A stretch of DNA of 64,000 nt from Xanthomonas hyacinthi (GTDB lineage Bacteria; Pseudomonadota; Gammaproteobacteria; Xanthomonadales; Xanthomonadaceae), in NCBI RefSeq assembly GCF_009769165.1, contig NZ_CP043476.1, positions 1,178,001-1,242,000 on the forward strand. The letters are read 5' to 3'. Positions 25,479 to 59,650 of this stretch are shown in pieces (within the stretch, counting starts at the first letter, position 1; each line of letters opens with the position of its first letter). The translations under genes were made by a program, and so were the position numbers. Under the pieces are notes generated by a model. That model saw nothing but the letters and a program-made list of their open reading frames with translations, searched no databases and was not told the DNA's origin.

Positions 25479-26433
25479 TACCTGCGTGCTGTCCGTCGTC
25501 ATTCCGGTCTATCGGAGCGAATCCATCCTGCCGACGCTCGCAGAAAAGCTTGGCCAGACGCTGCCTGCGATGTTTGGCGATTCGTTCGAGGTCATCTTGG
25601 TCAACGACTGCAGTCCCGACCGTTCGCGGGAAGTGCTCCTCGAGCTGGCGCGCGCGCGCAGTTGGTGGAAGGTGGTCAATCTGCGAAAGAACGCCGGCCA
25701 GCACAACGCCATCATGGCCGGCTTGCGCGTAGCGCGTGGACGGCAGATCGTGACCATGGACGACGACCTGCAGCACAATCCGGAAGATATCCCCCAACTG
25801 CTGGCGGCCCTCGCCGAGGGCTACGATGTCTGTTACGCGAGCTTCCACGCCAAACAACATGCGCTGTGGAAGAAAGCTGGAAGCGCGTTCAACGACCGCA
25901 TGGCCGTCTACCTGCTTGGCAAGGCCCCCGGGCTGTATCTGTCCCCGTTCCGCGCAATGGTATCGGGCATTCGCGACGAGCTCATCAAGTTCACAGGGCC
26001 CAACGTCTATCTGGACGGGCTGATCCTGGCAAACACGGCGAGCATCACCAGCATCAAGATCGACCACCACGCACGCGCCGACGGCCAGTCTGGCTATAGC
26101 CTGCGCAAATCGGTCTCGCTGTGGCTGAAGATGGCCACGAGCTTTTCGGTATTTCCGCTGCGCCTGGCGTCGCTGACCGGGATCGCGGTGTCCATGCTGG
26201 GCTTCCTGTTGGCGCTCCTGTTCATCATCCAGCGCTTCATCTTCAACGCCATGCCGGTCGGCTGGGCTTCCTTGATGGTCTGCACGCTCATCGTCGGCGG
26301 CATCCAGCTGCTGGCGCTCGGCGTGATCGGCGAGTATCTCGGCCGTGCCTTGCGCCATGTCAATGCCACGCCACAGGTGGTGATCGAATCAACCGCCAAC
26401 ATCCCGTCCCCCGGCGAATCGACTACACCATGA
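25456..26433 (+). CDS. GtrB-like family 2 glycosyltransferase (polyprenyl-phosphate type)
   Basis: 325 residues; MSADTC at residue 5 is an alternative start. The GT2 domain (1-220) begins LSVVIPVYRSES, has the nucleotide acid VNDCSPDRS and the metal-binding MDDDLQHNPED motif (a D-x-D variant). The C-terminal 100 residues hold two membrane segments, as in GtrB, ArnC and DPMS-type enzymes that load a sugar onto undecaprenyl phosphate. It directly precedes a GtrA-type flippase (ATGA overlap), which supports the polyprenyl-phosphate-sugar role. The sugar donor cannot be read from the sequence. Confidence 0.88.
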   Translation: MATTMSADTCVLSVVIPVYRSESILPTLAEKLGQTLPAMFGDSFEVILVNDCSPDRSREVLLELARARSWWKVVNLRKNAGQHNAIMAGLRVARGRQIVTMDDDLQHNPEDIPQLLAALAEGYDVCYASFHAKQHALWKKAGSAFNDRMAVYLLGKAPGLYLSPFRAMVSGIRDELIKFTGPNVYLDGLILANTASITSIKIDHHARADGQSGYSLRKSVSLWLKMATSFSVFPLRLASLTGIAVSMLGFLLALLFIIQRFIFNAMPVGWASLMVCTLIVGGIQLLALGVIGEYLGRALRHVNATPQVVIESTANIPSPGESTTP

Positions 26434-26852
26434 AACCATTCCGCGCGGCGCTGGAAGATCCACGCATCCGGCAATTCCTGCTTTACGCGATCTGCGGCGG
26501 CACCGGCGTGTGCCTGGACCTGTGTCTCTATACCGTGCTCATCTGGCTGGACACCAACTACCAGATCGCGAACGCAGCAGGCTATATCGCCGGCACCCTG
26601 GCCAGCTTCACCCTCAATCGCCACTTCACCTTCCAGACATACGACCGCACCCTGCAGCGGCTTGGCCTCTTCCTCGGGACGGCGCTGATCGGCTACCTCG
26701 TTTCTAGCGCCCTGCTGTGGGTACTGGTCTCTATCCTCGGCTGGGGTCCGCTTTGGGCAAAGCTTGCGACATTGGCTGTGGTCCTAGTTCTTCAATTCTC
26801 TCTCAACCGGGCCATCACGTTCCGGGCACCTACGAGCATCTCAAGCAAATGA
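26430..26852 (+). CDS. GtrA family membrane protein (predicted lipid-linked sugar flippase)
   Basis: 140 residues with four predicted membrane segments: the first at LLYAICGGTGVCLDLCLYTVL, then AAGYIAGTLASFTLNRHFTF with the conserved N-R-x-F/Y-x-F motif, and two more ending QFSLNRAITF. The repeated N-R-x-x-x-F motif marks the GtrA/PST family. Its start overlaps the preceding stop (ATGA), as does its stop with the next start, so the operon is translationally coupled. The family is proposed to flip polyprenyl-phosphate-sugars made by GtrB-type enzymes across the inner membrane. Confidence 0.88.
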   Translation: MKPFRAALEDPRIRQFLLYAICGGTGVCLDLCLYTVLIWLDTNYQIANAAGYIAGTLASFTLNRHFTFQTYDRTLQRLGLFLGTALIGYLVSSALLWVLVSILGWGPLWAKLATLAVVLVLQFSLNRAITFRAPTSISSK

Positions 26853-28168
26853 GCAACCAATTCCATACTGTGATCATCGGTGGCGGTTTCGCCGGCCTGT
26901 CTGTTGCCTATGAACTCGCCAAGCAGGGCCGGAAAGTAGTTGTCGTCGAACGCGACCAGGAACTCGGCGGCCTGGCCGGCGGCTTCAAGGTGGGCGACCA
27001 GGTCCTGGAGAAGTTCTACCACCACTGGTTCAACAACGACGTCGAAATCTTCAAGCTGATCGAGGAACTGGGCGCCAACGACAACATCGTGCTGCGCCCC
27101 ACTCGAACCGGCATGTACTTCGCCGACCAGTTCTTCCGCCTTAGCACGCCGATGGACCTGCTGCGATTCAATGCCCTGCCGTTCATCGATCGCATCCGGC
27201 TCGGCATCGCCGTACTGCGTGCCCGCTCCGTCAAGGATTGGAAGAAGCTGGAGAATCTCAGTGCCAAGGAGTGGCTGCTCGATCTGTGCGGAGAGAACGC
27301 GTACAACGTCGTCTGGGATCCGCTGCTGGTCGGCAAGTTCGGCGACGTCGCGGATGACGTTTCCGCAGTCTGGTTCTGGAAGAAGCTGGTTCTACGCGGC
27401 GGTAGCCGCAGTAGTTCAGGCGATGAAGTGCTCGCATACTACCGAGGCGGCTTCGCGGCCCTGGCCGAGAAGCTGGGCGAAGCGATCGTCCGGCTTGGCG
27501 GAGAAATCAGGCTGGGCACGGGGGCTACCTCGGTGATCGCCCGCAATGGAGTCGCAAGCGGCGTTCGACTCGCGGACGGAGACATCCATGCCGACAACGT
27601 GGTGCTGTCCACGGCTTTCCCGATCTCCGCCGATCTCCTGCAGGGCACGGTCGACGACGCATTTCTCCACTCGCTGCGGCGTATCCGCTACCTGGCCAAT
27701 GTCTGCATGGTGTTGTCGCTTGATCGCAGTCTGTCGGAAACCTATTGGCTGAACGTGAACGACCCTGGCTTTCCATACGTCGGCGTGATTGAGCACACGA
27801 ACTTCGAACCGGCCAGCTCCTACGGTGGCCGCCACATCGTGTATCTCTCCAAGTACCTGCCCACCAGCCATCCCATGTATACGATGACGGACCAGGAACT
27901 CGTTGACTTCTCGCTGCCGCATCTGCAGAAGATGTTCCCGGCCTTCGATCGGAGCTGGATCCAGGACGTACACGTATGGCGGGCCGAATACGCGCAGCCG
28001 ATCGCAGAGAAGCACTACTCCACGTTGGTGCCGGGCCGCGAGACCCCGCTTCGCAACGTGTACCTGACCAGCATGGCCCAGGTCTATCCAGAGGATCGGG
28101 GCACGAACTACGCGGTCCGCGAAGGCAGGAACCTCGCCACGGACATCCTGGCATCGGATTCGCGATAA
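26849..28168 (+). CDS. FAD-dependent oxidoreductase (amine-oxidase/UDP-Gal-mutase-like) of the LPS locus
   Basis: 439 residues. The N-terminal FAD motif is VIIGGGFAGLSVAYELAKQG, followed by VVVVERDQELGGLAGGF, the R-x-x-x-G-G-x-x-G signature of the protoporphyrinogen-oxidase/amine-oxidase fold (COG1232-like). The C-terminus carries the second FAD contact around YPEDRGTNYAVREGRNLA. Similar proteins occur in sugar-polymer loci, where the flavin may oxidise or isomerise a sugar or its lipid-linked form. It is coupled by ATGA overlap to the GtrA gene. Substrate unknown; UDP-galactopyranose mutase is a distant alternative, but its key lid residues are not recognisable. Confidence 0.75.
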   Translation: MSNQFHTVIIGGGFAGLSVAYELAKQGRKVVVVERDQELGGLAGGFKVGDQVLEKFYHHWFNNDVEIFKLIEELGANDNIVLRPTRTGMYFADQFFRLSTPMDLLRFNALPFIDRIRLGIAVLRARSVKDWKKLENLSAKEWLLDLCGENAYNVVWDPLLVGKFGDVADDVSAVWFWKKLVLRGGSRSSSGDEVLAYYRGGFAALAEKLGEAIVRLGGEIRLGTGATSVIARNGVASGVRLADGDIHADNVVLSTAFPISADLLQGTVDDAFLHSLRRIRYLANVCMVLSLDRSLSETYWLNVNDPGFPYVGVIEHTNFEPASSYGGRHIVYLSKYLPTSHPMYTMTDQELVDFSLPHLQKMFPAFDRSWIQDVHVWRAEYAQPIAEKHYSTLVPGRETPLRNVYLTSMAQVYPEDRGTNYAVREGRNLATDILASDSR

Positions 28169-30196
28169 ATGGCCACCGAGTACATTGTCCAGGGCACGGA
28201 CGATAAGCGCCGCAACCCCTCCGCGAACCAGCGACGCATCTCCATCGCGGCGCTGTATCTTTGCGCGGGGCTGCTTATTGTCGTGGTGCTGTATCCGATC
28301 CTCTGCAGTTTCCCGAAGGACAGAACGGGCGACGGCTCCGAATACTATGCGATGGAAATGGCCATCAGCATTGAGCATCGGCCGTATGTCCAGGCGGAGA
28401 CGTGGGCTGCCTACGAGCAGCTGCGGGAGTCGGGACAGATCCGCGGGATGCAGCCGGCTGCCGATTTGCAGGCGTTCTATCAGCGCCTGACTTCCAACGG
28501 CGGAACGGATTTCAATCATTTCTGGTTCTATCCGGTAGCCGCGGCCGCGATCGGTCGAGCCGGCGAGTTGATCGGCCTCAGTCACGAGTCGCATGCGCAC
28601 TTCATGCTGCTTCATGCTGTGCTGGTCGCGGGTCTGTTGCTCTTGTGCGCCCATCTGCACGGGTGGCGAGGGACTCTGGCGGCGGCGGCCATCCTCTTTG
28701 CGTCACCGGCCCTCTGGTATTGCAACAAGGTCCACACCGAACTTTTCACGGCGGCGCTCAGCACCGCAGCACTGGCTTGCGCGCTGCGGCAGCGCTGGGC
28801 GTATGCCGGCCTCTTGCTCGCAGTCGTTACCACCCAGAACATCAGCTTCGTGGTTCCGGCGTTTGTCGCCTGCACGATCGCCTTGTTCGCGCATGCGACG
28901 TCGCGCGAGACCAGAATGTCGCTACTCGAGGTCGTGGCACTGACGCTGGCCCCGATGGTCGCCTTGCTGCATCCGTTCTATTACTTCGCGCGATTCGGCA
29001 GCTTTACCCCACAGCTGATCAATGGCGGGGCGCAGGTCTCCGACCTCCATATCCTTTCGTCCCTACGATACATTTTCGACCCGGACATCGGACTCATCCC
29101 GAACTGGCCCCTGGGTCTCGTCATCCTGGCCGTGGGCCTCCACGGGGTGATCGCCAAGCGCTTCCCGCGCCCGACGCCGATCGCAGCGGGCTTCGTGGCC
29201 ATCTATGCCTTGGCTGCGATGACCGCGCAAGCGGCCACGACCAACGTCAACTCCGGCGGCACTTTCGGTCCTGCCCGCTATGGACTGTGGTACATCTGCC
29301 TCTTCTATCCGCTCATCGCCCTGCTCGGACCTCTGAAGCAGTCGCAATGGAGCCGCTGGCTGGGACGCGCGACATGGGCGATCGCCGTGCTCGCGGTGGT
29401 CCTCGGCATGCGCCTTGCGTGGCCGGCGAAGATCGAGTCCTACCTCACTCCCAGTCGAGCGGCCTCGCTCATCTATGGCTACGTCCCCTGGCTCTGGAGC
29501 CCGACCGAGGAAGTCTTCTACGAACGCAATTCGGGCATTGGAGAACTGCGCCCGACGCTTCCTGCGCTGGTGGTGGGACCCAGGTGCCGCAAGGCTCTCT
29601 TCATGCCCGGCCAGGAATCAAGCACGTTGACGGTCTATCCGACCGGGGCATGCGCACTGACTCCGGAGAGCGGCGCCGCATTGATTGCCTCGAACTTCAA
29701 GGAGCGGCCGACCTCGCCCCAGTATTTCAGCATTGACCGCCAAGCCCTACCGAAGGCACCTATCTTTCCGGCAGCGCGCTCCATCAGTGTCGCTGGTTTA
29801 CGCCCCTACCTCAGCGAGGGCTGGTCGGCCGATGAGCCCTCAGGGGTCTGGTCGCTGGGTGACGATTCGAGTCTGCGGCTGCGAATGGAAGAGGCTACGA
29901 CGGAAGGCAGTCGGCTGCTTCTTCAGGTCAACGGCCTGTGGGCGCCAAAACGCCAGTCCATGGCGATCGGCGCGCGCGTCAATGGCGGAGCATGGCAGCA
30001 GACGACCCTGACGGCGTCGGCGCCACAGCCTCAACAGATCAAGATTGCATTGCCGGAACTGCCAGCGGGCGCCGAGGTGCAGGTCGAACTTCATTATGAC
30101 CATCCCGCTTCGCCCGCTCAGCTCGGCATGTCTTTGGACAACCGAGTGCTGGGGATCTATCTAATCTCCCTACAATTGTCGCCGAGCACGCGCTAA
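28169..30196 (+). CDS. Large polytopic membrane protein, GT-C-like (predicted periplasmic glycosyltransferase)
   Basis: 675 residues. About ten membrane segments lie between residues 25 and 430. The first extracytoplasmic loop contains DRTGDGSEYYAMEM (D51, D55), the acidic site expected in GT-C transferases that use polyprenyl-phosphate sugars. The last 200 residues are soluble and beta-rich, presumably periplasmic. It has no close recognised family, but its place directly after GtrB- and GtrA-like genes (its ATG follows the preceding stop with no gap) gives the classic gtrA-gtrB-gtrX arrangement, in which the third protein attaches the sugar to the O-antigen. The assignment is by context, not by homology. 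Confidence 0.65.
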   Translation: MATEYIVQGTDDKRRNPSANQRRISIAALYLCAGLLIVVVLYPILCSFPKDRTGDGSEYYAMEMAISIEHRPYVQAETWAAYEQLRESGQIRGMQPAADLQAFYQRLTSNGGTDFNHFWFYPVAAAAIGRAGELIGLSHESHAHFMLLHAVLVAGLLLLCAHLHGWRGTLAAAAILFASPALWYCNKVHTELFTAALSTAALACALRQRWAYAGLLLAVVTTQNISFVVPAFVACTIALFAHATSRETRMSLLEVVALTLAPMVALLHPFYYFARFGSFTPQLINGGAQVSDLHILSSLRYIFDPDIGLIPNWPLGLVILAVGLHGVIAKRFPRPTPIAAGFVAIYALAAMTAQAATTNVNSGGTFGPARYGLWYICLFYPLIALLGPLKQSQWSRWLGRATWAIAVLAVVLGMRLAWPAKIESYLTPSRAASLIYGYVPWLWSPTEEVFYERNSGIGELRPTLPALVVGPRCRKALFMPGQESSTLTVYPTGACALTPESGAALIASNFKERPTSPQYFSIDRQALPKAPIFPAARSISVAGLRPYLSEGWSADEPSGVWSLGDDSSLRLRMEEATTEGSRLLLQVNGLWAPKRQSMAIGARVNGGAWQQTTLTASAPQPQQIKIALPELPAGAEVQVELHYDHPASPAQLGMSLDNRVLGIYLISLQLSPSTR

Positions 30197-30353: not shown

Positions 30354-32868
<2,515 letters not shown>

Positions 32869-34638
32869 TCATGCCTCGGCTGCCCGGACCCTCACGAAGA
32901 GCCGCGCCGCTGCAAACCCCCTGTTCTTGAACCAACAGACCGACTCTTGAACAAGGTCGATCTCAAGGTGGTAGTCGCCGGGAAAATCCGGCGCGCGCAC
33001 AGTGATTTCCTGGATACCCGAGAAAGAAGGGGCAACCGTCTCCTCGATGAAGTGTCGTGGCTGCTCAGTTGGCTGCGTTGTCGGATCGGAAGAGATCCAG
33101 AAGTGCCCGAGATAAATCCCGAACGGCCTGACCGAATGATCCCTCGGACTCAACCAAGCAAACTGACTATCATTGATCAATTCCACCCGCAAACAGATCC
33201 TGCTGGAAGGTTCGACCACGCCCACATCGTGCTCCACAACAACTGCGCTGCCCTGAAAGGCGCTCTCCGGCAGCGCCTCGCCATAGGGATATGGCCGCGC
33301 CGCGTCGCCCATGATCCGAGCGTGCGAGTCCAGCTCCTGGTCCGCCAGGGCGGCCAGCGCCCGGTCGACCCACCGATCGCCGCGCAGCGTGGCGCGAACG
33401 TCGATCCTATGCAATTCGCTGCATAGCGGGGACTCGACGTCCACCTTCATACTCGAAATGGCATGCGCCACGCGGTCGCGGAAATCGGAAAAGACACAAT
33501 GGCTCCGCAGCATCTCGGCGTACGTTTCGGTCGCGGGAAAGGGATCCAGTGCGGGGTGTCCCGCCTGGTCCACGCACTCTTCCGCCCAGTCGGAAAAAAA
33601 CTGCGAATCACGCACCATGTGCAGCAGCAGGTCCGCCAGCGACCCTGGGCACTCCGTGTCGGGCAATACCTTCTTGACACAGGGAGGGAGTTCGGCGTAC
33701 CAACCGTGATCCGACACGATGACTGGCAGTCCAGCCTGCAAGGCCTTGCACACCACAGCCGACGCTTCTCCCATCGTCGGTTGCCGCAAGGCGATCATCA
33801 GATCGGCACGTTCGAACACCTTCCAGAACTGCTCGTCATCGACATGGCCATGATTGATCAGTCGAACATTGTCCAGCGCCTGAATTGCCTGCAAATGAAC
33901 CAAAACAGCCGGATCCACTTCACCCGCGATCTCCACGATGAGGGGCTCTTCCAGGCCGGTATCGATCGACGAAAGTGCGCTGGCAATCCAGTCGAAACGA
34001 CGGTTCCCCTGCCCCCCCCCCATGAGCGCGATGGTCTTCAATCGCCCCCGGACGCGATGCGGCGCCACCACCGGATACAGTTGGGGTACGACCTTTACCG
34101 GCAGCCAGGGGAAGACCTCGGCGATCCTGTTCGCCGTGTAGTGGGAATGCACTATCACTTCGGTGGCGAACTTCGTGACTACCTCATGTAGCGGATAGTG
34201 CACGACCTCATCACGGTTCCAAATCGGAAATCCGCTGCGCAGCGCAAGGGCCGCGGACCTGACCTGGTCCGGTGATTGCCACTTCGCCAGCAACTCGACA
34301 TAGTCCCCGTTGGTCAGGCGCCCCTCCTTGTCCAGCACGCCCGCAGTCATGTGATGCAACACCAGATCGTGCAGGTGCACGATGCCTGGTACCACGGCCA
34401 TGAGCGGAAGCATCCAGCCATGGAACCCAGGATGATTGCCCATCTGGTAAACCACGGCATCCGCAGAGCGCAGCGTGCCTAGCACGTGCGACACCCCTCT
34501 ACGCTTCATGTCCGTCTGCGTCACCGGATCAACGTGCAGCCCACGATCGCGGAGCATTTCCACGAGGCCGGCCGTATACTCCGCAATCCCCGAACGCTCG
34601 GGAGGTTGCGGTCCAACCATCGCAACTCGAAACGGCAT
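32869..34638 (-). CDS. Glycosyltransferase family 4 protein with C-terminal beta-domain
   Basis: 589 residues; an in-frame TTG six bases earlier could also start it. The N-terminal GT-B part (1-380) begins VAMVGPQPPERSGIAEYTAGLVEML and contains the C-terminal Rossmann segment GEASAVVCKALQAGLPVIVSDHGWY (the E-x7-E-like site with A/V substitutions). A linker (380-460) leads to a domain of about 120 residues ending IDLVQESVCWFKNRGFAAARLF. That end matches the lipoprotein at 14,084-14,623 (D-L-V-Q-E-S-V-x-W-F). The reaction is a transfer of a sugar to the growing O-polysaccharide in the cytoplasm; donor unknown. It is in the operon with the next glycosyltransferase (2-base gap). Confidence 0.82.
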   Translation of the reverse strand: MPFRVAMVGPQPPERSGIAEYTAGLVEMLRDRGLHVDPVTQTDMKRRGVSHVLGTLRSADAVVYQMGNHPGFHGWMLPLMAVVPGIVHLHDLVLHHMTAGVLDKEGRLTNGDYVELLAKWQSPDQVRSAALALRSGFPIWNRDEVVHYPLHEVVTKFATEVIVHSHYTANRIAEVFPWLPVKVVPQLYPVVAPHRVRGRLKTIALMGGGQGNRRFDWIASALSSIDTGLEEPLIVEIAGEVDPAVLVHLQAIQALDNVRLINHGHVDDEQFWKVFERADLMIALRQPTMGEASAVVCKALQAGLPVIVSDHGWYAELPPCVKKVLPDTECPGSLADLLLHMVRDSQFFSDWAEECVDQAGHPALDPFPATETYAEMLRSHCVFSDFRDRVAHAISSMKVDVESPLCSELHRIDVRATLRGDRWVDRALAALADQELDSHARIMGDAARPYPYGEALPESAFQGSAVVVEHDVGVVEPSSRICLRVELINDSQFAWLSPRDHSVRPFGIYLGHFWISSDPTTQPTEQPRHFIEETVAPSFSGIQEITVRAPDFPGDYHLEIDLVQESVCWFKNRGFAAARLFVRVRAAEA

Positions 34639-34640
34639 GC

Positions 34641-35708
34641 TCAAAGCCGGGTCTCCAAGAGATTACGTATCACCCGGTCCCATGTGATGGTTGTGCTGAG
34701 CTGATGCCCTGCGTCTGCCAGCTCCCTAAGTTCTGCCGGTTGTTTGGAATAGCACGCAATCAGGCTCTCGGCGATCGCCTCCGGCGTAGGGCTTGTCACC
34801 CAGCCGCTACCGGTCGACTGGACGATTCGGCCGACTTCGCCGCTGTCGTCGACAGTGATCACGGGCTTGTGTGCCGCGAAGCTTTCCAAAGTCGCGAAAC
34901 CGTAGTCCTCGTCGACGGGAGAGTAGAAGACCGCACGACAGTTGGATATCAACTCAAGCAGCTTCTCATCCTCGACGAAACCCGCGAGTTCCACCCGATC
35001 CTCAACGCCCAGCTGATGCACAAGCGGCGCCAGAGATCGCGCATACTCGCCCGCACCGGTGCCTGCGATGACGACCCTCGCATGAGGCACGTGCTGTACC
35101 GCACGTATCAGCAGATCGGGCCTCTTCATCGACTCGAGTCGACCGATGCACAGCACGTAGTTTCCATAATCGCCCGGCTGGATGAACGGAGCGAGCTTGG
35201 AGGGGGGATACAGCACGTTGGACGCCAGCCCGCAATACTGCTGCAGACGGTCGGTAACGGTCTGGGAGATCGTGTAGCGCGGATCGATCTCCGCCAACAG
35301 TTCTTTATCCGAGGCGCGGACGGCATCACGCAGCGCCATGTCCCTGGCGGTGAGGTGGGGAATGTCGAAGCGCGTCCGTTCCAGGTCATAGAGGACCCGG
35401 TGCTGATGCACGAGCCACAGCGCCTTGTTCGAATGCGCGGCGGCATAAGTCGGAAACTTCGTGCAGATGCACAGGTCGATCTTCTGCCCGTTGCTTTCAT
35501 TCAGATCAAGCAACCGCCACGACAGCATCGAGGACAGGATCTCGGATTCCGGATACCACTTGTAAGGCAGCTGCACCAGCTCTGCGACGACGCTGCGCCC
35601 CTTTCCCCACAGATTGATCTGCCGGACCAACTCCTCATTGAGGAGCTCGGCGCCTCCCCGAACGAACGGCACTTGCGCGCCAAGCACGACGACTCTCTTC
35701 AAGATCAT
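34641..35708 (-). CDS. Glycosyltransferase family 4 protein
   Basis: 355 residues with a GT-B fold. The N-terminus RVVVLGAQVPFVRGGAELLNEELVRQI is the G-G-A-E motif of the family, the central linker contains NYVLCIGRLESMKRPDLLIRAV, and the catalytic end DEDYGFATLESFAAHKPVITVDDSGEVGRIV carries the E-x7-E motif. It is a retaining cytoplasmic transferase for O-chain assembly, with donor likely GDP-D-rhamnose or dTDP-L-rhamnose by context. It begins 48 bases after the WbdD-like gene's stop. Confidence 0.9.
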   Translation of the reverse strand: MILKRVVVLGAQVPFVRGGAELLNEELVRQINLWGKGRSVVAELVQLPYKWYPESEILSSMLSWRLLDLNESNGQKIDLCICTKFPTYAAAHSNKALWLVHQHRVLYDLERTRFDIPHLTARDMALRDAVRASDKELLAEIDPRYTISQTVTDRLQQYCGLASNVLYPPSKLAPFIQPGDYGNYVLCIGRLESMKRPDLLIRAVQHVPHARVVIAGTGAGEYARSLAPLVHQLGVEDRVELAGFVEDEKLLELISNCRAVFYSPVDEDYGFATLESFAAHKPVITVDDSGEVGRIVQSTGSGWVTSPTPEAIAESLIACYSKQPAELRELADAGHQLSTTITWDRVIRNLLETRL

Positions 35709-35756
35709 TCCCTCTTCGATGATGTCCTTACCACTGCAATTATTCTTCGCAAATCG

Positions 35757-38174
35757 TCACCGCGACTTCCTGATCCGACTGCCAAGCTGATCAAGTGCGG
35801 CCAGCCTCTTCTCTAAGGCCGCGTCGGCCGGGGTGGGCAGCCCCGCATCCGCAACGGCGGCATCTCCTCTTGCCCCGATCGGGCGCGACCGAACAAGGGC
35901 CGCTCTAGGGCGCCCGAGCACGGCCGTGGAGAACCACCTCAAGGGCGCGGTGACGCGCCATGAACGACTGTCGTGAATGCTTGCAACCTGCCGCTCGAGG
36001 GCTTCGACGGCAAACTCAAGCTCACGAATGCGATTGCGGGCCGACTCGACGGTGTGGACCCGCTGCGAAAGATTCACATGCAACTCCTCCAGCCGCCGCC
36101 TGTCATGGCTGCGCGAGGTCTCCGACCGTTCGGCCCTTTGCAGGTGCGATGCGATCTTCGCCTGGAGATCTCGTATGGACGCCTCGTGCTGATCCTTCAG
36201 AAGCCGCCCACCAGACGCCGCCACCTGCAGCGCATCGCGCTCCGCCGTCAGACGTTCCACATCTGCAGCAAGCAGTTCGGCCAACTCGCGCGCACGTTGG
36301 TGTTCCTCCAGATCCATTTCAAGTTCCACAATCCGCGCGGACAGACTTACATTGCTCTCTTGCGACTTGTACGCACGGAACTCCAGCGCTCGAGACAATT
36401 CTGCCAATCGCCGACCGCTCTCCTCGAGATCGCGATGGCGGGTGTTGGCCATCTCAAGCTCCAGCTGCATCGCAGCGACCTTTTCCTGGCTTCCAAGCTC
36501 CTCAATCCGCGCGGATAGACCTGCGTTGCTCTCCTGCGTCTCGTACACGCGGGACTCCAGCTCCCGCGACCACTCTACCAGCCGTCGACTGCGCTCCTCG
36601 AGATCGCGATACCGGGTGTTGGCCATCTCAAGCTCGAACTGCAGCGCAGAGACCTGCTCCTGGCTTTCCTGCGCCTTTCTACGGATCTCGTCCAACGAAG
36701 CCGCCCGCGTAACCAACTCGATCCGGTCGTGTTCGCTCTGCGTCTGCAGCAAACCAAGGCGCGAGTTGTAACTGAGCAACGCGCGTTGCAGACGCGTGTA
36801 AATGCCGGCCCATTCCGGAGCGGCCATGGATGCTGGACTCGACTCCGACAAGCAAACCTGGAGCTCGGCGAATGTCCAGCCCCGTTGATTCTGACCGAAC
36901 AGGCGTATGCAGGCGTTTCGATAGCGATCCGGAAGAGTCATGAAATCGAGAGCGGGTTCGCGACCAGGAGTTGACGGCACGATACGACGGTCCACGATTT
37001 CCTTGACCGTGATCAGGAAAGACAGCAAAAGATCACCAAGCCAGGAACAGTCCTCGGGCGCGTCGGAGATCGCTCCGTAATCGATCAGGACGGCACGCCC
37101 ATCTTCGGAAACTAGCACGTTCCAGCAACGCACATCGTTATGGTAAAGACCCGCCCTTTCCAGGATGACCAGCTGCTCCAGCAACTCCGATATAACGCGG
37201 TCGGCACTGTAAGGCGATCCATCGTCGATAAGCTCGGACAACAGCCGCCCTTCCGTCTTCTCCCTGACAAGCCACAGATCCGACGAGTCGTTGAGCGCAT
37301 TAATCAATCTGGGAGCTGGATAGGAGTGCGGCGGATTCTGTAGAAATCCGACCTCGTTGTTGAATTCCTGCAAGTTGATTTCCGCCCTGCCCCCTAAGCC
37401 CAGCGTCATCTTCTTTACGAACACGTCCTTGCCGAAGTAGTAGCGCCTACTGGCCTTGTGTGTCCCGCGGGCATAGGCATGCGAATCAGCCGACCATGTC
37501 TCGAATTCCCCCAAGGCATCTCCTACATACCAGAACCTGTTGCTGGCGTAGTACAGCGGCCGCGAAACCGTCGACAGGTGCGTCGCCTGTCGCGAGAGCA
37601 GCCGAACGAACCCGAAGCTGGCCAATAGCTCAGCGGGATCCTGAGGCAAAGAGGCAGCCCAGTAGAGCGGCTCCTCCCGAAGCGCCATTTCGAAGATGGC
37701 GGCGCAGGTGACGTCCGCCAACTTTCGACACAGCTCATTCACCCGTGCCACGCCCTGGGCATGCACCAGATGATGGAACACACTCAAGCCAAGCACCAGG
37801 TCGTACTCGCCAGCGCCCAACCGCTCAACCACCTCCTCGATCGTGGCGTGCTCGAATACCGCATCGAACTCCGGGTGTTCCCGAGCCAGCCCCTGGCACA
37901 CGGCCACATTACGATCGAGGAAATCCACTCCGCGCACGCCATGACCGTCCGCAGCCAAGCTCAACGAAAAAAAGCCCTGTGCGCACCCCAGGTCCAATAC
38001 CCGAATGGAGCGCCCCAGCACCGACTGGAGCCGACGCGCGCACTCGCGGATCAGCAAGAGCCGATCCTCGCAACCGCGCGAACTGCCCTCTGAAAGTTCT
38101 GGATGCGCGTAGATCGGCTGATATTTCTCTGGCAGCGCGGCCACAAGCCCGGCGATGTTCTGTGACTCGTTCAT
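35757..38174 (-). CDS. WbdD-like methyltransferase-kinase with coiled-coil (O-antigen chain terminator)
   Basis: 805 residues. Residues 50-210 are a SAM-dependent methyltransferase (motif I VLDLGCAQGFFSLSLA, about residues 59-74). Residues 240-430 are a protein-kinase-like domain: ATP lysines in FVKKMTLG, catalytic D347 and N352 in HNDVRCWN, and metal D365 in LIDYGAI. Residues 480-740 are a long coiled coil containing a 58-residue tandem repeat. The C-terminus SWRVTAPLRWFSTAVLG is the amphipathic membrane-association motif common after glycosyltransferases. This order matches WbdD of E. coli O8/O9a, which adds a methyl/phosphate cap to the O-chain end and sets its length. It is next to wzm-wzt, as expected. 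The cap structure here is inferred. Confidence 0.85.
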   Translation of the reverse strand: MNESQNIAGLVAALPEKYQPIYAHPELSEGSSRGCEDRLLLIRECARRLQSVLGRSIRVLDLGCAQGFFSLSLAADGHGVRGVDFLDRNVAVCQGLAREHPEFDAVFEHATIEEVVERLGAGEYDLVLGLSVFHHLVHAQGVARVNELCRKLADVTCAAIFEMALREEPLYWAASLPQDPAELLASFGFVRLLSRQATHLSTVSRPLYYASNRFWYVGDALGEFETWSADSHAYARGTHKASRRYYFGKDVFVKKMTLGLGGRAEINLQEFNNEVGFLQNPPHSYPAPRLINALNDSSDLWLVREKTEGRLLSELIDDGSPYSADRVISELLEQLVILERAGLYHNDVRCWNVLVSEDGRAVLIDYGAISDAPEDCSWLGDLLLSFLITVKEIVDRRIVPSTPGREPALDFMTLPDRYRNACIRLFGQNQRGWTFAELQVCLSESSPASMAAPEWAGIYTRLQRALLSYNSRLGLLQTQSEHDRIELVTRAASLDEIRRKAQESQEQVSALQFELEMANTRYRDLEERSRRLVEWSRELESRVYETQESNAGLSARIEELGSQEKVAAMQLELEMANTRHRDLEESGRRLAELSRALEFRAYKSQESNVSLSARIVELEMDLEEHQRARELAELLAADVERLTAERDALQVAASGGRLLKDQHEASIRDLQAKIASHLQRAERSETSRSHDRRRLEELHVNLSQRVHTVESARNRIRELEFAVEALERQVASIHDSRSWRVTAPLRWFSTAVLGRPRAALVRSRPIGARGDAAVADAGLPTPADAALEKRLAALDQLGSRIRKSR

Positions 38175-38213
38175 GACTCGTCATTCTCTTTGTTCATGGT
38201 GGCGTCCAGGAGG

Positions 38214-39500
38214 CTATAGAAATGCATCCACGACCTCGAAATCGGCCTTCAAGTCCATCATCCCCCAGAACTGCATGCCTCGCGCAACGTCCAGCAAGAC
38301 GGCATCGTATCGACGATCGAGGGGCGTCAACTCCGCCAACGGATCGCCACTCGACACGCCGAACGATACGAGGTAGTTCGCTTCATTGAGATCAAGCGGC
38401 ATGCTGAATTTGCAGACGATCACCTCGCCCGCCTTGGCCGCGATGCCCGCCCTTCCCTCGCTCAGGAGAAACGAATTCGTTCCGTACAGGAACAGACCTT
38501 CCAGCGTCTTCACCAGGAATCCCGGAATGACGCTTTCGAAATCGCCATCGAAGGCAATCTTGACGTAGAACTCCGTTCTGGCGCCACTTTCCACGCGCGA
38601 CGGAAACTCTTGTCCGTCACTGACGACCATGTAATCTACGATGCGGGCGCCGCCCTGGCCCCAACGATGTTCGTTGACGTTGTAGTAGGGACGAGCGTGG
38701 AAGACATCCTCGCTTCCGCTCCCCATGCTGGATGACACGCCCTTTGCATCCGCGTTCAGCGAAGCGCTCTTCTTGCCGAATAGCTCGTCCAGATACAGGT
38801 TGGATACTTCGCGGGCGGGCCCATCCGCATGTACGCCGCCATCCTTGATCAAGATAGCCCGGTCGCAGTGCTTTACGATATCGCCCACCGAGTGACTGAC
38901 GAGAATAAGGGTCGTACCTTGATCCTTGAAGAATTGGATGCGCTTGAAGCATTTTGCCTGGAAATAGGCATCCCCGACCGACAGCGCCTCGTCGACGATC
39001 AGGATGTCGGGACGAAACGCCGTAGCGACCGCGAAGGCGACCCGGACTTGCATGCCACTCGAATAGGTACGGACAGGCTCATCGAAGTACTCGCCGATTT
39101 CGGCGAACTCTTGGATCTCGGGAAGGACGGCCTCGATCCGGTCCAGCGTGTAACCCATGAGGCCCGCGGAATGCCGTGCATTGTCGCGCCCACTCAATTC
39201 TGGGTTGAAGCCCATGCCGAGTTCGAGAATGGCGGCGATGCGTCCGCGCCGGACGATTCGACCTTCGGTGGGCTGGGAAGTACCGGTGATCAACTTGAGC
39301 AGAGTGCTCTTTCCCGCGCCATTGCGCCCCATGATCCCGATCGACTCGCCGGGAGCTATGGAAAATCCGACATTCCGCAGCACCCAATGCTCTTCGCGCG
39401 GCCGGACCTTCATGCCGAACCAGCTTGCGGCACGCAGCCACTCGCTGCCCCATACGCGATACGACTTGCCCAGACCTTCGATCATCAGTACAGCGCTCAC
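38214..39500 (-). CDS. wzt: O-antigen ABC transporter ATP-binding protein with Wzt C-terminal domain
   Basis: 428 residues from a GTG that overlaps the wzm stop (GTGA). Walker A is GRNGAGKST (58-66), signature YSSGMQVRVA, Walker B DILIVDEALSVGD. The last 160 residues (after about 270) form the Wzt-C beta-sandwich, the carbohydrate-binding part that in O8/O9a-type systems recognises the capped chain end. The presence of a Wzt-C domain together with a WbdD-like capping protein next door is the hallmark of a cap-dependent transporter. Upstream open frame sequence is antisense and was ignored. Confidence 0.94.
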   Translation of the reverse strand: MSAVLMIEGLGKSYRVWGSEWLRAASWFGMKVRPREEHWVLRNVGFSIAPGESIGIMGRNGAGKSTLLKLITGTSQPTEGRIVRRGRIAAILELGMGFNPELSGRDNARHSAGLMGYTLDRIEAVLPEIQEFAEIGEYFDEPVRTYSSGMQVRVAFAVATAFRPDILIVDEALSVGDAYFQAKCFKRIQFFKDQGTTLILVSHSVGDIVKHCDRAILIKDGGVHADGPAREVSNLYLDELFGKKSASLNADAKGVSSSMGSGSEDVFHARPYYNVNEHRWGQGGARIVDYMVVSDGQEFPSRVESGARTEFYVKIAFDGDFESVIPGFLVKTLEGLFLYGTNSFLLSEGRAGIAAKAGEVIVCKFSMPLDLNEANYLVSFGVSSGDPLAELTPLDRRYDAVLLDVARGMQFWGMMDLKADFEVVDAFL

Positions 39501-40282
39501 AGCGCGTCCACCATTTCCGCACTTGCACGACGGAAGACGACGAGCGAAGCGGCACCGAGCACCAACGTGGCCGCGATCAGGGGCCACAAGTCCGTCCAGA
39601 CGGGGGGACGGTCGTACAGGAGCACTCCCTGGTAAGCGGTCACGAGGTGAAACAGGGGATTGAGCTTGAACAGATTCTGCACCTGTTCGGGAAGGATGTT
39701 GATGCTGTAGACGACCGGCGTCAGCCAGAACAAAGCCTGGAGCACGACCGGCACGACCTGCCCGATATCGCGCACAAAAACGTTGAAGACGCCCAGCAGC
39801 AAGCCCACCGACATCGCAAATCCCAACGTGAGCAGCATCAGCAGCGGCAACCATGCGACCAGAGGCCCCGGGGAGTGCCCCAGCGCCGCGAACACGAGAA
39901 GGATGGCGACGAACAATAGCAAATTGTTCACAAATACAGTGCCACCGGCCACGAGGGGCAGACAGATGCGCGGGAATGCCTGCTTCTTCATGAGGTTGCC
40001 GTTCTCCACGAACAGCGAGACGCATCTTCCGATGGTCTCGGCAAACATGCTCCAGAACAGCGTCCCCGCCATGAGGTAGAGAGCGTAACCGTATTTGTTA
40101 CTGACACCGGGAAGCTTCGCCGACAACACTTCCGACAGAATCGTGGCGAAGATCACCACCTGCATGAGCGGATGAATGATCATCCACAGGGCCCCCAACT
40201 TGCTTCGGACAAAACGCAACCGTAGATCATTCTTGATCGATGAAAGAATGAAATATCGATAAGCCCATATGGATCTGATCAT
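39497..40282 (-). CDS. wzm: O-antigen ABC transporter permease
   Basis: 261 residues. The ATG giving MIRSIWAYRYFILSSIKND was chosen because the family begins with this R-x-x-x-x-x-Y-F segment; the frame is open 45 codons further up. About six membrane segments follow, with SKLGALWMIIHPLMQVVIF near the start and the conserved FVRDIGQVVPVVLQALFWLTPVVY (W-x-T-P). It pairs with Wzt to carry the finished lipid-linked O-chain across the inner membrane. The next upstream gene ends 110 bases away. Confidence 0.95.
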   Translation of the reverse strand: MIRSIWAYRYFILSSIKNDLRLRFVRSKLGALWMIIHPLMQVVIFATILSEVLSAKLPGVSNKYGYALYLMAGTLFWSMFAETIGRCVSLFVENGNLMKKQAFPRICLPLVAGGTVFVNNLLLFVAILLVFAALGHSPGPLVAWLPLLMLLTLGFAMSVGLLLGVFNVFVRDIGQVVPVVLQALFWLTPVVYSINILPEQVQNLFKLNPLFHLVTAYQGVLLYDRPPVWTDLWPLIAATLVLGAASLVVFRRASAEMVDAL

Positions 40283-40391
40283 GCCCAACACTGCCACCTC
40301 TGCATATTTTTGTCGACGCGGTGCAAGGTCAGGCCCACTCCACGCAACGCGACTGGCGCCGCGGGGCGACTCCACGTAATGTCTTGCGAAT

Positions 40392-41765
40392 TCAATCCGG
40401 CACCGGCTCCAGCTCAACCAATCTTGCCAACAGGCGCTGCGCCGCCCGGTCGGGCGAGAGCTGATCGCGAACCTCCGTACTCGCTACCTCGCCGAGCGCG
40501 CGAGCACGCGCCGGATTGTCAGCGAGCCAACGCATCGCCTCCGCTGCGCTGGCTGTGCTGGCCTCGGCCCAACGCGCTCGGCTCGAATCCGGGTATTGTC
40601 CGTCCACCGGCACCAGTTCGTAGTCGACGAGGCAGGAATTCCCAGCCGTCATGAATTCCATGTTGCCCGACCAGGCGGTGGCGATCACCGGCTTGCCCAG
40701 CGCCATGCATTCTGCCAGACCCAACCCAAAACCCTCGGCACGATGCAGCGAGACATAAGCATCGCAGCAGCGCTGCAAGGCGTGCACATGCGCCCGGTCG
40801 ATCACCTCATCACGCACCAGAATACGAGGATCGCCAGCCGCCGAGGCGAGCAGGTCCCGCATCCCATCCGGATACATGTGGCCATTGCTCGACTTCACCA
40901 GCAGGCATACGTCGCCACGATCGGAAGGAAAGGCCGCCTTGAAGGAGCGCACCACCGCATGGGGGTTTTTCCGTGCCATGAACGAGTGGAAATCGAACGT
41001 GCACAGAAATACGAACCTGTGAGATTCCAATCCGAAATCCGAGCGCTGCAGGCCACTATCCCGCCACTCCGACAGAGGTGGCGGCACCCGCATGATGGGC
41101 TTGCCGGTAACCTGGCGAAAAGCATCCTCCAGGAACTGCGAAGCGACCATGATCTCGTCCACCATGTCGATCGCCTTGAGCCAGCTGGCTGGAACCACTT
41201 CCAGCTCCCAGAACCAGCACGCGATCACGTAGTGGCCCTCCATGCGCGCGCGCCCGACCCGGTCGAAGGCAGCGTCGAGATAATCCGGATTGACGAAAAC
41301 GATGCTGACGCGATGAGGCAGGCGCTCGTCGATGAACTCGTCCATGCTGTGGTCCTGCCACGAATGCGGCAGCCCCAGATCAAGATCGTGCAGCGCCACC
41401 GGGATGCCTGCGTTAATCAGGGCACGCGCATACATCCTGGCGCTCTCGGCCAGCCCGAATTCCCCTCGGATATAACCAATGATGTTGACACCCGGCACTC
41501 GCGCGGCAGAGGGTTCCCAGTTACGTCTCCGCCAGGAAGTCGCGCTGGTGGGCGTCTGCTCCCAGGCGGCTGTCCGCTGGAAACGCGTGTGCATGGTTGC
41601 TCGCGCGGAAAGCGCGGCAGTCACACGATCGCGAACTGCCTGCGGGAAAAACCGATACACCTGTTTCAGGCGAGGCTGTCGGCGAATCCACGCTTGCAGG
41701 CGCAGACCAAACAATCCAGTCCGCAGCGAGGTCAAAATGCCCGAAGGTCGTTGGGAAGCCGTCAT
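40392..41765 (-). CDS. Glycosyltransferase family 4 protein at the metB border of the LPS locus
   Basis: 457 residues. The ATG at 41,765 gives MTASQRPSGILTSLR and overlaps the metB stop by 4 bases (ATGA). The GT-B part starts after a 90-residue N-terminal extension at GVNIIGYIRGEFGLAESARMYARAL, with the acceptor-side motif RAEGFGLGLAECMALGKPVIAT (E-x7-E) near residues 345-365. The N-terminal extension is not in the common family and its role is unknown. It is the first gene after metB and the promoter-distal part of that operon, so it may depend on metB transcription. Confidence 0.87.
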   Translation of the reverse strand: MTASQRPSGILTSLRTGLFGLRLQAWIRRQPRLKQVYRFFPQAVRDRVTAALSARATMHTRFQRTAAWEQTPTSATSWRRRNWEPSAARVPGVNIIGYIRGEFGLAESARMYARALINAGIPVALHDLDLGLPHSWQDHSMDEFIDERLPHRVSIVFVNPDYLDAAFDRVGRARMEGHYVIACWFWELEVVPASWLKAIDMVDEIMVASQFLEDAFRQVTGKPIMRVPPPLSEWRDSGLQRSDFGLESHRFVFLCTFDFHSFMARKNPHAVVRSFKAAFPSDRGDVCLLVKSSNGHMYPDGMRDLLASAAGDPRILVRDEVIDRAHVHALQRCCDAYVSLHRAEGFGLGLAECMALGKPVIATAWSGNMEFMTAGNSCLVDYELVPVDGQYPDSSRARWAEASTASAAEAMRWLADNPARARALGEVASTEVRDQLSPDRAAQRLLARLVELEPVPD

Positions 41766-42961
41766 GTCACCGGCTTCGTCTTGAACGCCCGCTGCAAATC
41801 CACCTGCAAATCCCCCACATCCTCCACCCCAACGCTCAACCGCACCAGCGCATCGCTGATGCCGAGCTGGGCGCGCCGCTGGACCGGGACCGAGGCATGG
41901 GTCATGACCGCAGGATGGTTGACCAGGCTTTCCACGCCGCCCAGCGATTCGGCCAGGGTGAACAGTTCGGTGCGTTCGCAGAAGCGCCTGGCCGCGTCGA
42001 AGCCGCCCTTGAGCACGATCGAGACGATGCCGCCGAAGCCGGACATCTGCCGCTGCGCCAAAGCATGCTGCGGATGCGAGGCCAGGCCGGGGTAGATCAC
42101 CTTGTCGATCGCCGGATGGGTGTCCAGCCATTGCGCCAGCTGCAGCGCATTGGCGCAGTGCGCGCGCATGCGCAGCGGCAGGGTCTTGAGCCCGCGCAGC
42201 GCCAGGAAGCTGTCGAACGGCCCCTGCACGCCGCCCACCGAGTTCTGCAGGAACGCCAGCTGCTCGGCCAGTTCGGCATTGGCGCCGACCACGGCGATGC
42301 CGCCGACCATGTCCGAGTGGCCGTTGAGGTACTTGGTGGCCGAATGCACGACGATGTCCGCGCCCAGTTCCAGCGGGCGCTGCAGCATCGGCGAAGCGAA
42401 GGTGTTGTCCACCACCACCAACAGGCCGTGCTTGCGCGCGATCGCCGCGATCGCGGCAATGTCGACGATCTTCAGCATCGGGTTGGTGGGGGTCTCGATC
42501 CACACCATCCTGGTCTTCGGCCCGATCGCCGCTGCGAACGCGGCCGGATCGGTCAGGTCGACGAAGCTGAACTCCAGGGCGGCGGTGCGCCGGCGCACGC
42601 GCTCGAACAGGCGGTAGCTGCCACCGTACAGGTCGTCCATCGCCACCACGTGGCTGCCGCTGTCCAGCAGTTCCATCACCGTGGAGGTCGCGGCCATGCC
42701 GGAGGCGAACGCGAAGCCGCGGGTGCCGCCTTCCAGCGCGGCGACGCAGCGCTCGTAGGCGAAGCGGGTCGGGTTGTGGGTGCGCGAGTACTCGAAGCCC
42801 TGGTGTTCGCCGGGGCTGGACTGGGCGTAGGTGGAGGTCGCATAGATCGGCGGCATCACCGCGCCCGTGGACGGGTCCGGATGCTGGCCGCCATGGATCG
42901 CCAGGGTCGCCAGCGACAGCGCAGGGCCGTCGCCATTGGGGGTGGAGGCGTTGTCCGTCAT
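41762..42961 (-). CDS. metB: Cystathionine gamma-synthase
   Basis: 399 residues. The PLP lysine is in HSATKYLNGHSD; other signatures are the N-terminal PPIYATSTYAQSSPG, EYSRTHNPTRFAYE, and ASGMAATSTVMELL. It condenses O-succinyl-homoserine (or O-acetyl) with cysteine to give cystathionine in methionine synthesis. Cystathionine beta- or gamma-lyase activity cannot be excluded from motifs alone. It marks the right border of the LPS locus and overlaps the adjacent glycosyltransferase start. Confidence 0.93.
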   Translation of the reverse strand: MTDNASTPNGDGPALSLATLAIHGGQHPDPSTGAVMPPIYATSTYAQSSPGEHQGFEYSRTHNPTRFAYERCVAALEGGTRGFAFASGMAATSTVMELLDSGSHVVAMDDLYGGSYRLFERVRRRTAALEFSFVDLTDPAAFAAAIGPKTRMVWIETPTNPMLKIVDIAAIAAIARKHGLLVVVDNTFASPMLQRPLELGADIVVHSATKYLNGHSDMVGGIAVVGANAELAEQLAFLQNSVGGVQGPFDSFLALRGLKTLPLRMRAHCANALQLAQWLDTHPAIDKVIYPGLASHPQHALAQRQMSGFGGIVSIVLKGGFDAARRFCERTELFTLAESLGGVESLVNHPAVMTHASVPVQRRAQLGISDALVRLSVGVEDVGDLQVDLQRAFKTKPVT

Positions 42962-59103: not shown

Positions 59104-59106
59104 TTA

Positions 59107-59650
59107 GGCGAGTTCCCCGATACCGACGCCGTGGTTCGGCTCTACCCGGATACCGACCCGCCACCCGATACGTTGGCCTTCGCGTTCTGGCGCATTCCTG
59201 GACAAGAAGCAGCTGTTCCACGATGGCAAGCACCTGGTGCTGGCCAGGCGGGTGCCTGCGCTTCGCGCTGGCATCCGCCTGAGCGATGGCAGGCTTACGC
59301 CTATGCCATCCGCGCCTGCGCCGCACCTTGCGTCCGCTACCAGGCACTGGCGGCCGAGCTGGGCAAGCGGGCCGCCGCTGGCGATGCCGTGCCTGTGGCG
59401 ACGGCCCGGCCGCGCCCGCCACCGTCTGCACTGCTGGAGTTGAACACGCTCCAGGCGCTCGACGGCACCCTGGCGGGTGCGTCCTTGCGCGAAGTGGCTG
59501 AAGGGCTGTTCGGCGCCGGTGTGGTCGCGGCCGACTGGTACGCCGATAGCGCCCTGCGTGCCCGCGTGCGACGGCTGGTGCGCCGTGGCGATGCACTGAT
59601 GCGCAGCAGCGGCTACCGCCGCCTGGCGCAGCTTCCGCCATGCGCGTTGC
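59107..59650 (+). pseudogene. DUF2285-domain gene, decayed (two frameshifts, 5' part removed by IS)
   Basis: A reading frame that carries DUF2285 sequence is split in two places. The first part (YPDTDPPPDTLAFAFWRIPG) is followed in a different frame by FLDKKQLFHDGKHLVLARR, and then back in the first frame by ALDGTLAGASLREVAEGLFG and the R-x-R-V-R-R-L-V-R-R-G-D tail (59,455-59,640). The DUF2285 motif D-G-x-L-A-G-A-S/T-x-R-E-I/V-A-x-x-L-F-G is intact. This domain is typical of integrative conjugative elements of the ICE/Tn4371 type. The 5' end is cut off at the IS right end. The frame continues open to the LysR gene and does not indicate a long protein. Confidence 0.75.

What the first reader, a model, noticed from the sequence alone, without database searches (positions are those of the whole stretch)
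35757..41765. WbdD-like capping protein beside wzm-wzt and gmd-rmd: a cap-dependent D-rhamnan LPS export system
In the sequence, one protein joins a methyltransferase (VLDLGCAQG), a kinase-like domain (HNDVRCWN, LIDYGAI) and a long coiled coil, directly before Wzt with a Wzt-C domain and Wzm. In E. coli O8/O9a, WbdD has the same domain order and caps and measures the O-chain for Wzt-C recognition; this comes from published work on those strains. gmd and rmd add GDP-D-rhamnose, as in the Pseudomonas A-band. The proposal that this Xanthomonas-type strain makes a D-rhamnan capped by methyl/phosphate is inference. I know of few descriptions of a WbdD-type terminator in a plant-associated xanthomonad.
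Basis: partly seen in the sequence, partly recalled or inferred. Interest (0 to 1): 0.75.

Follow-up and report, generated by a model that had tools for sequence, protein, structure and literature searches.

The report
Sugar-chain capper with variable-length ruler
This plant-associated bacterium carries a known type of enzyme that caps its surface sugar chains, and in some of its relatives the rod-shaped part thought to measure the chains changes length in steps while the rest of the enzyme stays nearly the same.

Summary

What I did not find in the held library is that the coiled-coil "ruler" is naturally length-variable. The window's coil holds a 58-aa tandem duplication and is about twice that of E. 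coli O9. Two X. campestris alleles (764 and 799 aa) are identical at every aligned residue but for one extra 35-aa (five-heptad) copy; a third (834) has three copies. Of 22 coil indels in related pairs, 11 are multiples of 7. In E. coli all 48 full-cover rows listed share one length. That coil length sets rhamnan length in nature is inference, testable on existing strains.

The parts
35757..38174 (-). wbdD/wxcB-like gene, 805 aa: methyltransferase, kinase, coiled-coil ruler, C-terminal tail
37545..38174 (-). residues 1-210, SAM methyltransferase domain; H134, H135, R205 equal WbdD H132, H133, R203
   Evidence: role of these residues from PMC3482155 passage; domain limits by analogy to WbdD
36810..37544 (-). 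residues 211-455, protein-kinase-like domain; D347, N352, D365 kept; WbdD Y230 is H232, D350 is N346, R270 is I266
35970..36809 (-). residues 456-735, coiled-coil ruler, about 281 residues (about 42 nm at 0.15 nm per residue if one continuous helix)
36495..36668 (-). first copy of the 58-aa (174-bp) tandem duplication in the ruler, residues 503-560
   Evidence: 142 of 174 nt and 40 of 58 aa identical to the second copy
36321..36494 (-). second copy of the 58-aa tandem duplication, residues 561-618
35937..35969 (-). residues 736-746, SRSWRVTAPLR motif at the end of the coil, shared in part with E. coli WbdD (SRSWRMT); presumed membrane-proximal helix
   Evidence: membrane role inferred
38214..39500 (-). 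wzt, ABC transporter ATPase with C-terminal carbohydrate-binding domain
   Evidence: (2r5o first, E 6.9e-61)
39497..40282 (-). wzm, ABC transporter permease
40392..41765 (-). glycosyltransferase at the place of wxcA
34641..35708 (-). glycosyltransferase at the place of wxcC
32869..34644 (-). glycosyltransferase (591 aa) at the place of wxcD/wxcE
   Evidence: weak Pfam matches, below cut-off
31282..32322 (-). gmd, GDP-mannose 4,6-dehydratase (over NCBIfam equivalog cut-off)
   Evidence: TIGR01472, 457 bits, cut-off 415
30354..31322 (-). rmd, GDP-6-deoxy-D-lyxo-4-hexulose reductase-like (makes GDP-D-rhamnose)
   Evidence: first 4lw8 'putative epimerase', then 6x3b and 2pk3, both named reductases; no NCBIfam equivalog passed

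Best explanation
The block makes and exports a D-rhamnan O-chain by the capped ABC-transporter route. Gmd and Rmd supply GDP-D-rhamnose, the three GTs build the chain on a lipid carrier, the WbdD/WxcB protein phosphorylates and then methylates the growing end, and the Wzt carbohydrate-binding domain admits only capped chains to Wzm-Wzt. The coiled coil holds the capping enzyme at a set distance from the membrane and polymerase, so chains are capped only when long enough. In this lineage the coil is a length-tunable part: it grows and shrinks by in-frame tandem duplication and loss, in steps that mostly suit coiled-coil packing, while the catalytic half changes little. Shown here: homology, predicted fold, key residues, gene order, the duplication, and length alleles with an otherwise identical protein. 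Shown elsewhere for E. coli O9a: cap chemistry, cap-dependent export and ruler (PMC3482155, PMC5082667, passages). Inferred: D-rhamnan with methyl-phosphate in this strain, and that ruler length sets its chain length.
For: Sequence and fold match to WbdD. Phosphate-methylation and kinase residues kept in the window and in 57-59 of 61 aligned loci each. Wzt CBM best hit 2r5o; the only Wzt_C match in the genome. All 13 named Xanthomonas loci fetched have wzm, wzt, gmd and rmd beside the gene; 10 of 13 show the whole order metB-GT-wzm-wzt-wbdD-GT-GT-gmd-rmd. Ruler: 58-aa duplication in the window; X. campestris 764 vs 799 aa, 0 mismatches and one 35-aa insertion, and an 834-aa allele with three copies; X. 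vesicatoria vs X. nasturtii 19 mismatches but 115 residues difference; 24 of 159 proteins have a repeat downstream of the kinase at 15 or more of 28, while none of 159 register-keeping shuffles exceeds 12; 22 coil indels in 19 pairs, 11 multiples of 7 (p 8e-5), 20 of 22 with remainder 0, 3 or 4 (p 4e-6). Contrast: E. coli wbdD, 48 of 48 full-cover rows listed are 2127 bp. PMC4878081: an X. campestris wxcB mutant lacks O-antigen, and PMC3482155: an O9a wbdD mutant cannot export it.
Against: No chemistry of this strain is known. A wxcB mutant of X. euvesicatoria showed little or no LPS change (PMC8042644, PMC4878081, passages), and polar effects of the X. campestris insertion were not excluded. 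In X. campestris, mutants without side branches had more main-chain rhamnose (PMC4878081), so length is not set by the ruler alone. WbdD Y230, needed in vitro, is His here (H232); R270 is Ile. The window's own coil shows no heptad signal above shuffles (1.64 vs a maximum of 1.98 in 100; 6 of the 7 relatives tested do, P0120 does not), and AlphaFold breaks the helix at 561-581 with low confidence, inside the second copy. The 58-aa unit is not a multiple of 7 (remainder 2; it equals 2 x 7 + 4 x 11). The pairs were chosen for differing rulers, so indel counts per domain are biased; two of the 19 pairs come from one lineage (without one: 10 of 21 and 19 of 21).
Confidence: 0.8

Rival explanations
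1. Same terminator, but coil length is selectively neutral here: the coil only oligomerises the enzyme and tethers it to the membrane, chain length is set by polymerase:terminator ratio or by side branching, and tandem duplications drift.
For: Length ranges widely (209-420 residues from the HxD motif to the SxSWR motif in the 67 proteins measured); branch mutants change rhamnose content (PMC4878081); loss of coiled-coil packing would be purged even if length is free, which alone could explain the register-keeping steps.
Against: O9a coil insertions and deletions change modal length (PMC5082667 passage, citing Hagelueken 2015); the E. coli O9-type gene keeps one length in the rows sampled while the coil sequence differs by about 19% between two of its classes.
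Confidence: 0.3
2. The kinase half is inactive or has another acceptor and the protein only methylates the chain end, as the methyltransferase-only O8 WbdD does.
For: Y230 to H232, R270 to I266, D350 to N346.
Against: H132, H133 and R203, which PMC3482155 reports as essential to the O9a methyltransferase and without equivalent in O8, are kept; D347, N352, D365 kept; His at the Y230 place is the commonest state in the loci aligned (39 of 61), so it is not by itself a sign of decay.
Confidence: 0.12
3. The length alleles are assembly or annotation errors.
For: Tandem repeats can collapse or expand in assemblies; for X. campestris I had proteins, not DNA or reads.
Against: The three 799-aa proteins are listed on 13, 2 and 24 contigs and the 834-aa one on a 4.8-Mb contig; the window's two copies differ at 32 of 174 nucleotides, so they are no assembly echo; other periods recur in other lineages.
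Confidence: 0.05

Closest known systems
WbdD of E. coli O9/O9a (K. pneumoniae O3 has the same, per PMC11231755 passage)
   Same: Domain order, 42% identity in the structural alignment, phosphate-methylation and kinase residues, SRSWR motif at the end of the coil, place after wzm-wzt with a CBM-bearing Wzt.
   Different: Coil about 281 vs 133 residues; 58-aa duplication; tail after the motif 69 vs 116 residues; Y230 is His; neighbours are gmd/rmd, not manC/rfbK; the E. coli O9-type coil has one length in the rows sampled, xanthomonad ones vary.
WxcB of the X. campestris wxc cluster
   Same: Same place and gene order (PMC12573098 passage); about 57-60% identity over the whole length.
   Different: Ruler 44 residues longer than in the common 764-aa type (391 vs 347). 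In this genome's own genus 5 of 20 genomes have a relative at E <= 1e-30, and the other four are 49-51% identical over the matched part.
H. pylori FutA/FutB heptad-repeat ruler
   Same: Within-species heptad-repeat number variation in an LPS enzyme described as a molecular ruler (PMC2583950 passages).
   Different: A fucosyltransferase that decorates chains, not a terminator; repeats counted in single heptads; no relation tested or claimed. It is a precedent for how the variation may work.
K. pneumoniae O7 ORF6 and C. youngae O1/O2 ORF5 terminators
   Same: Methyltransferase-kinase with coiled coil; C. youngae has a Rha/Man chain and NMR consistent with a methyl-phosphate end (PMC11231755, PMC11127046 passages).
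   Different: The O7 kinase is reported as quite different and the protein is fused to GTs; C. youngae ORF5 was not compared by sequence here.
P. aeruginosa A-band and P. syringae clusters
   Same: gmd, rmd, wzm, wzt (A-band recalled).
   Different: Not compared by sequence here; a likely wbdD beside wzm/wzt in P. syringae is stated in PMC12608077 (passage).

Membership tests
WbdD (bifunctional, O9a type) | N-terminal SAM methyltransferase and kinase domains of WbdD fold | tested here: met
WbdD (bifunctional, O9a type) | H132, H133, R203 needed by the O9a methyltransferase, no equivalent in O8 | tested here: met
   H134, H135, R205; role from PMC3482155
WbdD (bifunctional, O9a type) | Kinase catalytic residues D351, N356, D369 | tested here: met
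   D347, N352, D365
WbdD (bifunctional, O9a type) | Y230 acceptor residue | tested here: inconclusive
   H232 here; His in 39 of 61 aligned loci, Tyr in 17, so Tyr does not mark the family; effect unknown
WbdD (bifunctional, O9a type) | Long C-terminal coiled coil as ruler, trimeric | tested here: inconclusive
   Long helix predicted 454-560 and 582-735, low-confidence break between; no proline in 281 residues, but no heptad signal above shuffles in this copy; oligomer not tested
WbdD (bifunctional, O9a type) | C-terminal region that recruits the polymerase | tested here: inconclusive
   SRSWR motif shared, tail shorter; the PDB sequence match ends near residue 450-458
WbdD (bifunctional, O9a type) | Beside wzm and a wzt with cap-binding C-terminal domain | tested here: met
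   (domain by homology; cap binding itself not tested)
WbdD (bifunctional, O9a type) | Adds methyl-phosphate to the chain end; export needs it | not testable with these tools
   needs enzyme assay, NMR/MS and a deletion
wxc cluster (wxcB) | Gene order metB-wxcA-wzm-wzt-wxcB-wxcC-wxcD/E-gmd-rmd between metB and etfAB | tested here: met
   order in X. hortorum printed in PMC12573098; etf genes at about 22.8-24.6 kb
D-rhamnan O-antigen cluster | gmd and rmd for GDP-D-rhamnose | tested here: met
   (rmd by PDB homology only)
D-rhamnan O-antigen cluster | Polymer contains D-rhamnose | not testable with these tools
   X. campestris B100 has a rhamnose main chain (PMC4878081); this strain unknown

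The most novel reading that the evidence does not exclude
Xanthomonads tune O-antigen length through a tandem-repeat-variable molecular ruler in the chain terminator. Duplications, most of them in steps that suit coiled-coil packing, lengthen the WbdD/WxcB coil without touching its catalytic half, giving natural strains that differ, in this protein, only by five-heptad steps: comparable to the heptad-repeat ruler of H. pylori fucosyltransferases, but in the terminator itself.
Probability: 0.5. Interest if true: 0.75.

Novelty: new variant of a known kind. Interest (0 to 1): 0.55.

Why it matters
As far as the papers I could read show, the ruler model of O-antigen length in WbdD rests on engineered coils in one E. 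coli serotype. A natural series in which two alleles are identical at all aligned residues except one extra 35-aa repeat would let the model be tested on existing strains by sizing their LPS. O-antigen is a phage and tailocin receptor and is seen by plants, so a repeat-variable ruler would be a simple genetic route to surface variation. It also suggests a function for WxcB, which the xanthomonad literature calls obscure.

Tried and rejected
Idea that His instead of Tyr at the acceptor site marks D-rhamnose (6-deoxy) chains: rejected. With gmd+rmd: 21 His, 5 Tyr; without: 18 His, 12 Tyr, 3 Asn, 1 Arg, 1 gap (61 loci). Idea that the Stenotrophomonas 11-aa repeat type varies in copy number within its species: not answered, since only one S. 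rhizophila protein was among the 120 of 610 rows listed. Idea that the gene is a usual part of this genus: not supported, 5 of 20 genomes at E <= 1e-30, 22 of 395 in the family sample. The block has G+C 0.60 against 0.69 beside it and the closest full-length matches among genomes are in another genus-level group, so lateral gain of the cluster is likely; the donor was not traced. Whether the two Wzy_C-domain proteins elsewhere in the genome are ligase or Wzy was not worked out. Foldseek 'pdb' was not run; the VIA-align list is a second look at Foldseek's ranking. Hagelueken 2015 on the ruler is not held; I know it only from PMC5082667, PMC11231755 and recall, and cannot exclude that it mentions natural length variants. 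Rows left out of counts: 2 of the 63 loci (L093, L094) had no match at the cut-off and are not among the 61; one search left out proteins of 600 aa or less or without a recognised kinase motif; one search used 67 of the 80 reduced proteins, those with a recognised closing motif. The protein searches list 120 of 575, 609 and 610 hits.
Full report

RESIDUES. On the alignment H132, H133 and R203 of WbdD, reported as essential for the O9a methyltransferase and without equivalent in the methyl-only O8 enzyme (PMC3482155, passages read), are H134, H135 and R205. D351, N356 and D369 are D347, N352 and D365. In 61 aligned loci these six places keep the residue in 59, 57, 59, 59, 59 and 59 rows. Three acceptor-side residues differ: Y230 is H232, D350 is N346, R270 is I266. 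Y230F abolished O9a activity in vitro and D350A gave longer chains in vivo (PMC3482155 section 9, read). His is however the commonest residue at that place (39 of 61), so it is a lineage difference, and it does not follow the presence of gmd and rmd.

NEIGHBOURS. wzt (38214-39500, GTG start overlapping the wzm stop) has a C-terminal domain whose best PDB match is 2r5o at 6.9e-61; that 2r5o is the O9a Wzt carbohydrate-binding domain is recalled. It is the only Wzt_C match in the genome. gmd passes the NCBIfam equivalog cut-off; rmd matches a putative epimerase (4lw8) and two solved GDP-6-deoxy-hexulose reductases. The genome also has two Wzy_C-domain and two Glycos_transf_4 proteins elsewhere, not worked out. 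All 13 named Xanthomonas loci fetched have wzm, wzt, gmd and rmd beside the gene, and 10 of 13 show the full order metB, GT, wzm, wzt, wbdD, GT, GT, gmd, rmd (in one of the ten the wbdD frame is split). That is the wxc cluster: the same order is printed for X. hortorum (PMC12573098, one passage). The gene is therefore wxcB.

WHAT WAS KNOWN. [quoted passage not shown] PMC4878081 (passages, with the abstract, and section 5 read) reports that an X. campestris wxcB mutant lacks O-antigen, notes the similarity to WbdD, and calls the function still obscure; polar effects were not excluded. PMC9040725 (passages) finds wzt, wxcB and wxcC important for growth of X. hortorum even in vitro. Against this, an X. 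euvesicatoria wxcB mutant showed little or no LPS change (PMC8042644, PMC4878081, passages); the X. euvesicatoria locus held here is of a distant lineage (L041, 44% identity).

THE RULER. TRF finds one tandem repeat in the gene, 174 bp x 2.0 at 36320-36666: residues 503-560 and 561-618, 40 of 58 aa and 142 of 174 nt identical. I measured the ruler as the distance from the HxD kinase motif to the SxSWR motif that closes the coil. It is 391 in the window, 243 in E. coli O9, and 209-420 in 67 proteins. Subtracting 110 residues for the rest of the kinase gives 281 against 133 residues, or 42 against 20 nm at 0.15 nm per residue; the published O9a distance is about 200 A (PMC5082667, passage).

Three X. 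campestris alleles differ by whole copies of one 35-aa unit (five heptads): 764, 799 and 834 aa. P0015 (799) and P0029 (764) have no mismatch and a single 35-residue gap; P0021 (834) differs from P0015 by 5 residues and one more 35-residue gap. On the tree of the catalytic part P0015 and P0029 are identical over the columns used; of the five rows of the sister group three carry the same 347-residue ruler and two do not (385 and 270), so one copy is probably ancestral. Those two, X. vesicatoria P0018 and X. nasturtii P0068, differ from each other at 19 residues but by 115 in the coil.

This recurs. Among 159 proteins with a recognisable kinase motif and over 600 aa, 24 have a repeat downstream of the kinase of at least 15 identities in 28 (best periods 58, 35, 38, 70, 7, 14, 11, 21, 22, 28, 89, 109, 129), not all independent; one register-keeping shuffle of each of the 159 never exceeded 12. 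In 19 disjoint pairs at 80% or more catalytic identity with different rulers, 9 differences are multiples of 7. Aligned end to end, the pairs have 22 gaps in the coil, 7 in the tail, 2 at the N-terminus and 1 in the catalytic part (biased by the choice of pairs); 11 of the 22 are multiples of 7 and 20 of 22 leave 0, 3 or 4, which keep the heptad or make a stutter (p 8e-5 and 4e-6, counted as independent; 10 and 19 of 21 without one pair of the X. campestris lineage). The stutter rule is recalled general knowledge.

CONTROL. The O9 wbdD gene matches 263 of 5426 complete E. coli genomes, 210 of them over at least 80% of its length. Of 60 rows listed at even steps, 48 cover it wholly and every one spans exactly 2127 bp, down to 89.7% identity; the other 12 match only 8-13% at the 3' end and their rulers were not measured. 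Three fetched proteins are all 708 aa although the coil of one class differs at about 19% of sites. A plasmid-borne type in one E. coli strain has a 2058-bp gene of another lineage. So a WbdD ruler need not vary within a species.

LIMITS. In the window the coil shows no heptad periodicity above 100 shuffles (6 of 7 relatives tested do), and the model breaks the helix at 561-581 with pLDDT under 50, inside the second copy, which most of the relatives aligned lack. For X. campestris I had proteins, not DNA or reads. Side branching also affects rhamnose content in X. campestris (PMC4878081). That ruler length sets chain length in these bacteria is inferred from E. coli. In the held library I found no report of natural length alleles of a WbdD ruler (listings and the passages cited); the 2015 ruler paper is not held. 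The nearest precedent is the heptad-repeat ruler of H. pylori FutA/FutB, whose repeat number varies within a patient and tracks O-chain size (PMC2583950, passages).

ORIGIN. The window's genus-level group has a relative in 5 of 20 genomes at E <= 1e-30, this one included; the other four are 49-51% identical over the matched part. The full-length 59-62% matches lie in another group, whose members include X. arboricola and X. nasturtii judging by coinciding coordinates. With the lower G+C this points to lateral gain, which is inference.

VERDICT. The part worth a second look is the length-variable ruler, which would make an engineered-coil model testable on natural strains.

Noticed in passing
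window 25456-30196 (+): GtrB/DPMS-like GT2, GtrA-family membrane protein, FAD amine-oxidase-family protein and a 675-aa protein without Pfam match, convergent to the wxc block: a candidate three-component module for adding side sugars outside the inner membrane (compare PMC11127046, passages).
   Followed up: partly
window 30354-41768: G+C 0.60 against 0.69 in the flanks, and the closest full-length matches among genomes lie outside the genus-level group: the cluster looks laterally acquired at the metB-etfAB site.
   Followed up: partly
L103 (E. coli ET650 plasmid NZ_CP100939.1, 41485-55555): An O9-type O-antigen cluster (mannose-1-phosphate guanylyltransferase, rfbK, wzm, wzt, wbdD-like gene, GTs) on a 74-kb plasmid between IS26 and IS5-like elements; the wbdD-like gene is 91% identical in DNA to that of Klebsiella oxytoca L058.
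   Followed up: no
L044 (X. arboricola NL_P126) and L085 (X. phaseoli ATCC 49119): The wbdD/wxcB frame is split into two overlapping or adjacent open frames in these two assemblies; left as found.
   Followed up: no
window 58981-61155 (+): One open frame of 724 aa reads a RovC-type DNA-binding domain followed by a LysR regulator; either a fusion or two genes read through.
   Followed up: no
window 60001-63000: G+C falls to 0.49-0.52; an MFS transporter lies at 62115-63320.
   Followed up: no
window 11016-13847 (+): 943-aa protein with an RgpF (rhamnan synthesis protein F) domain, about 17 kb from the O-antigen block.
   Followed up: no
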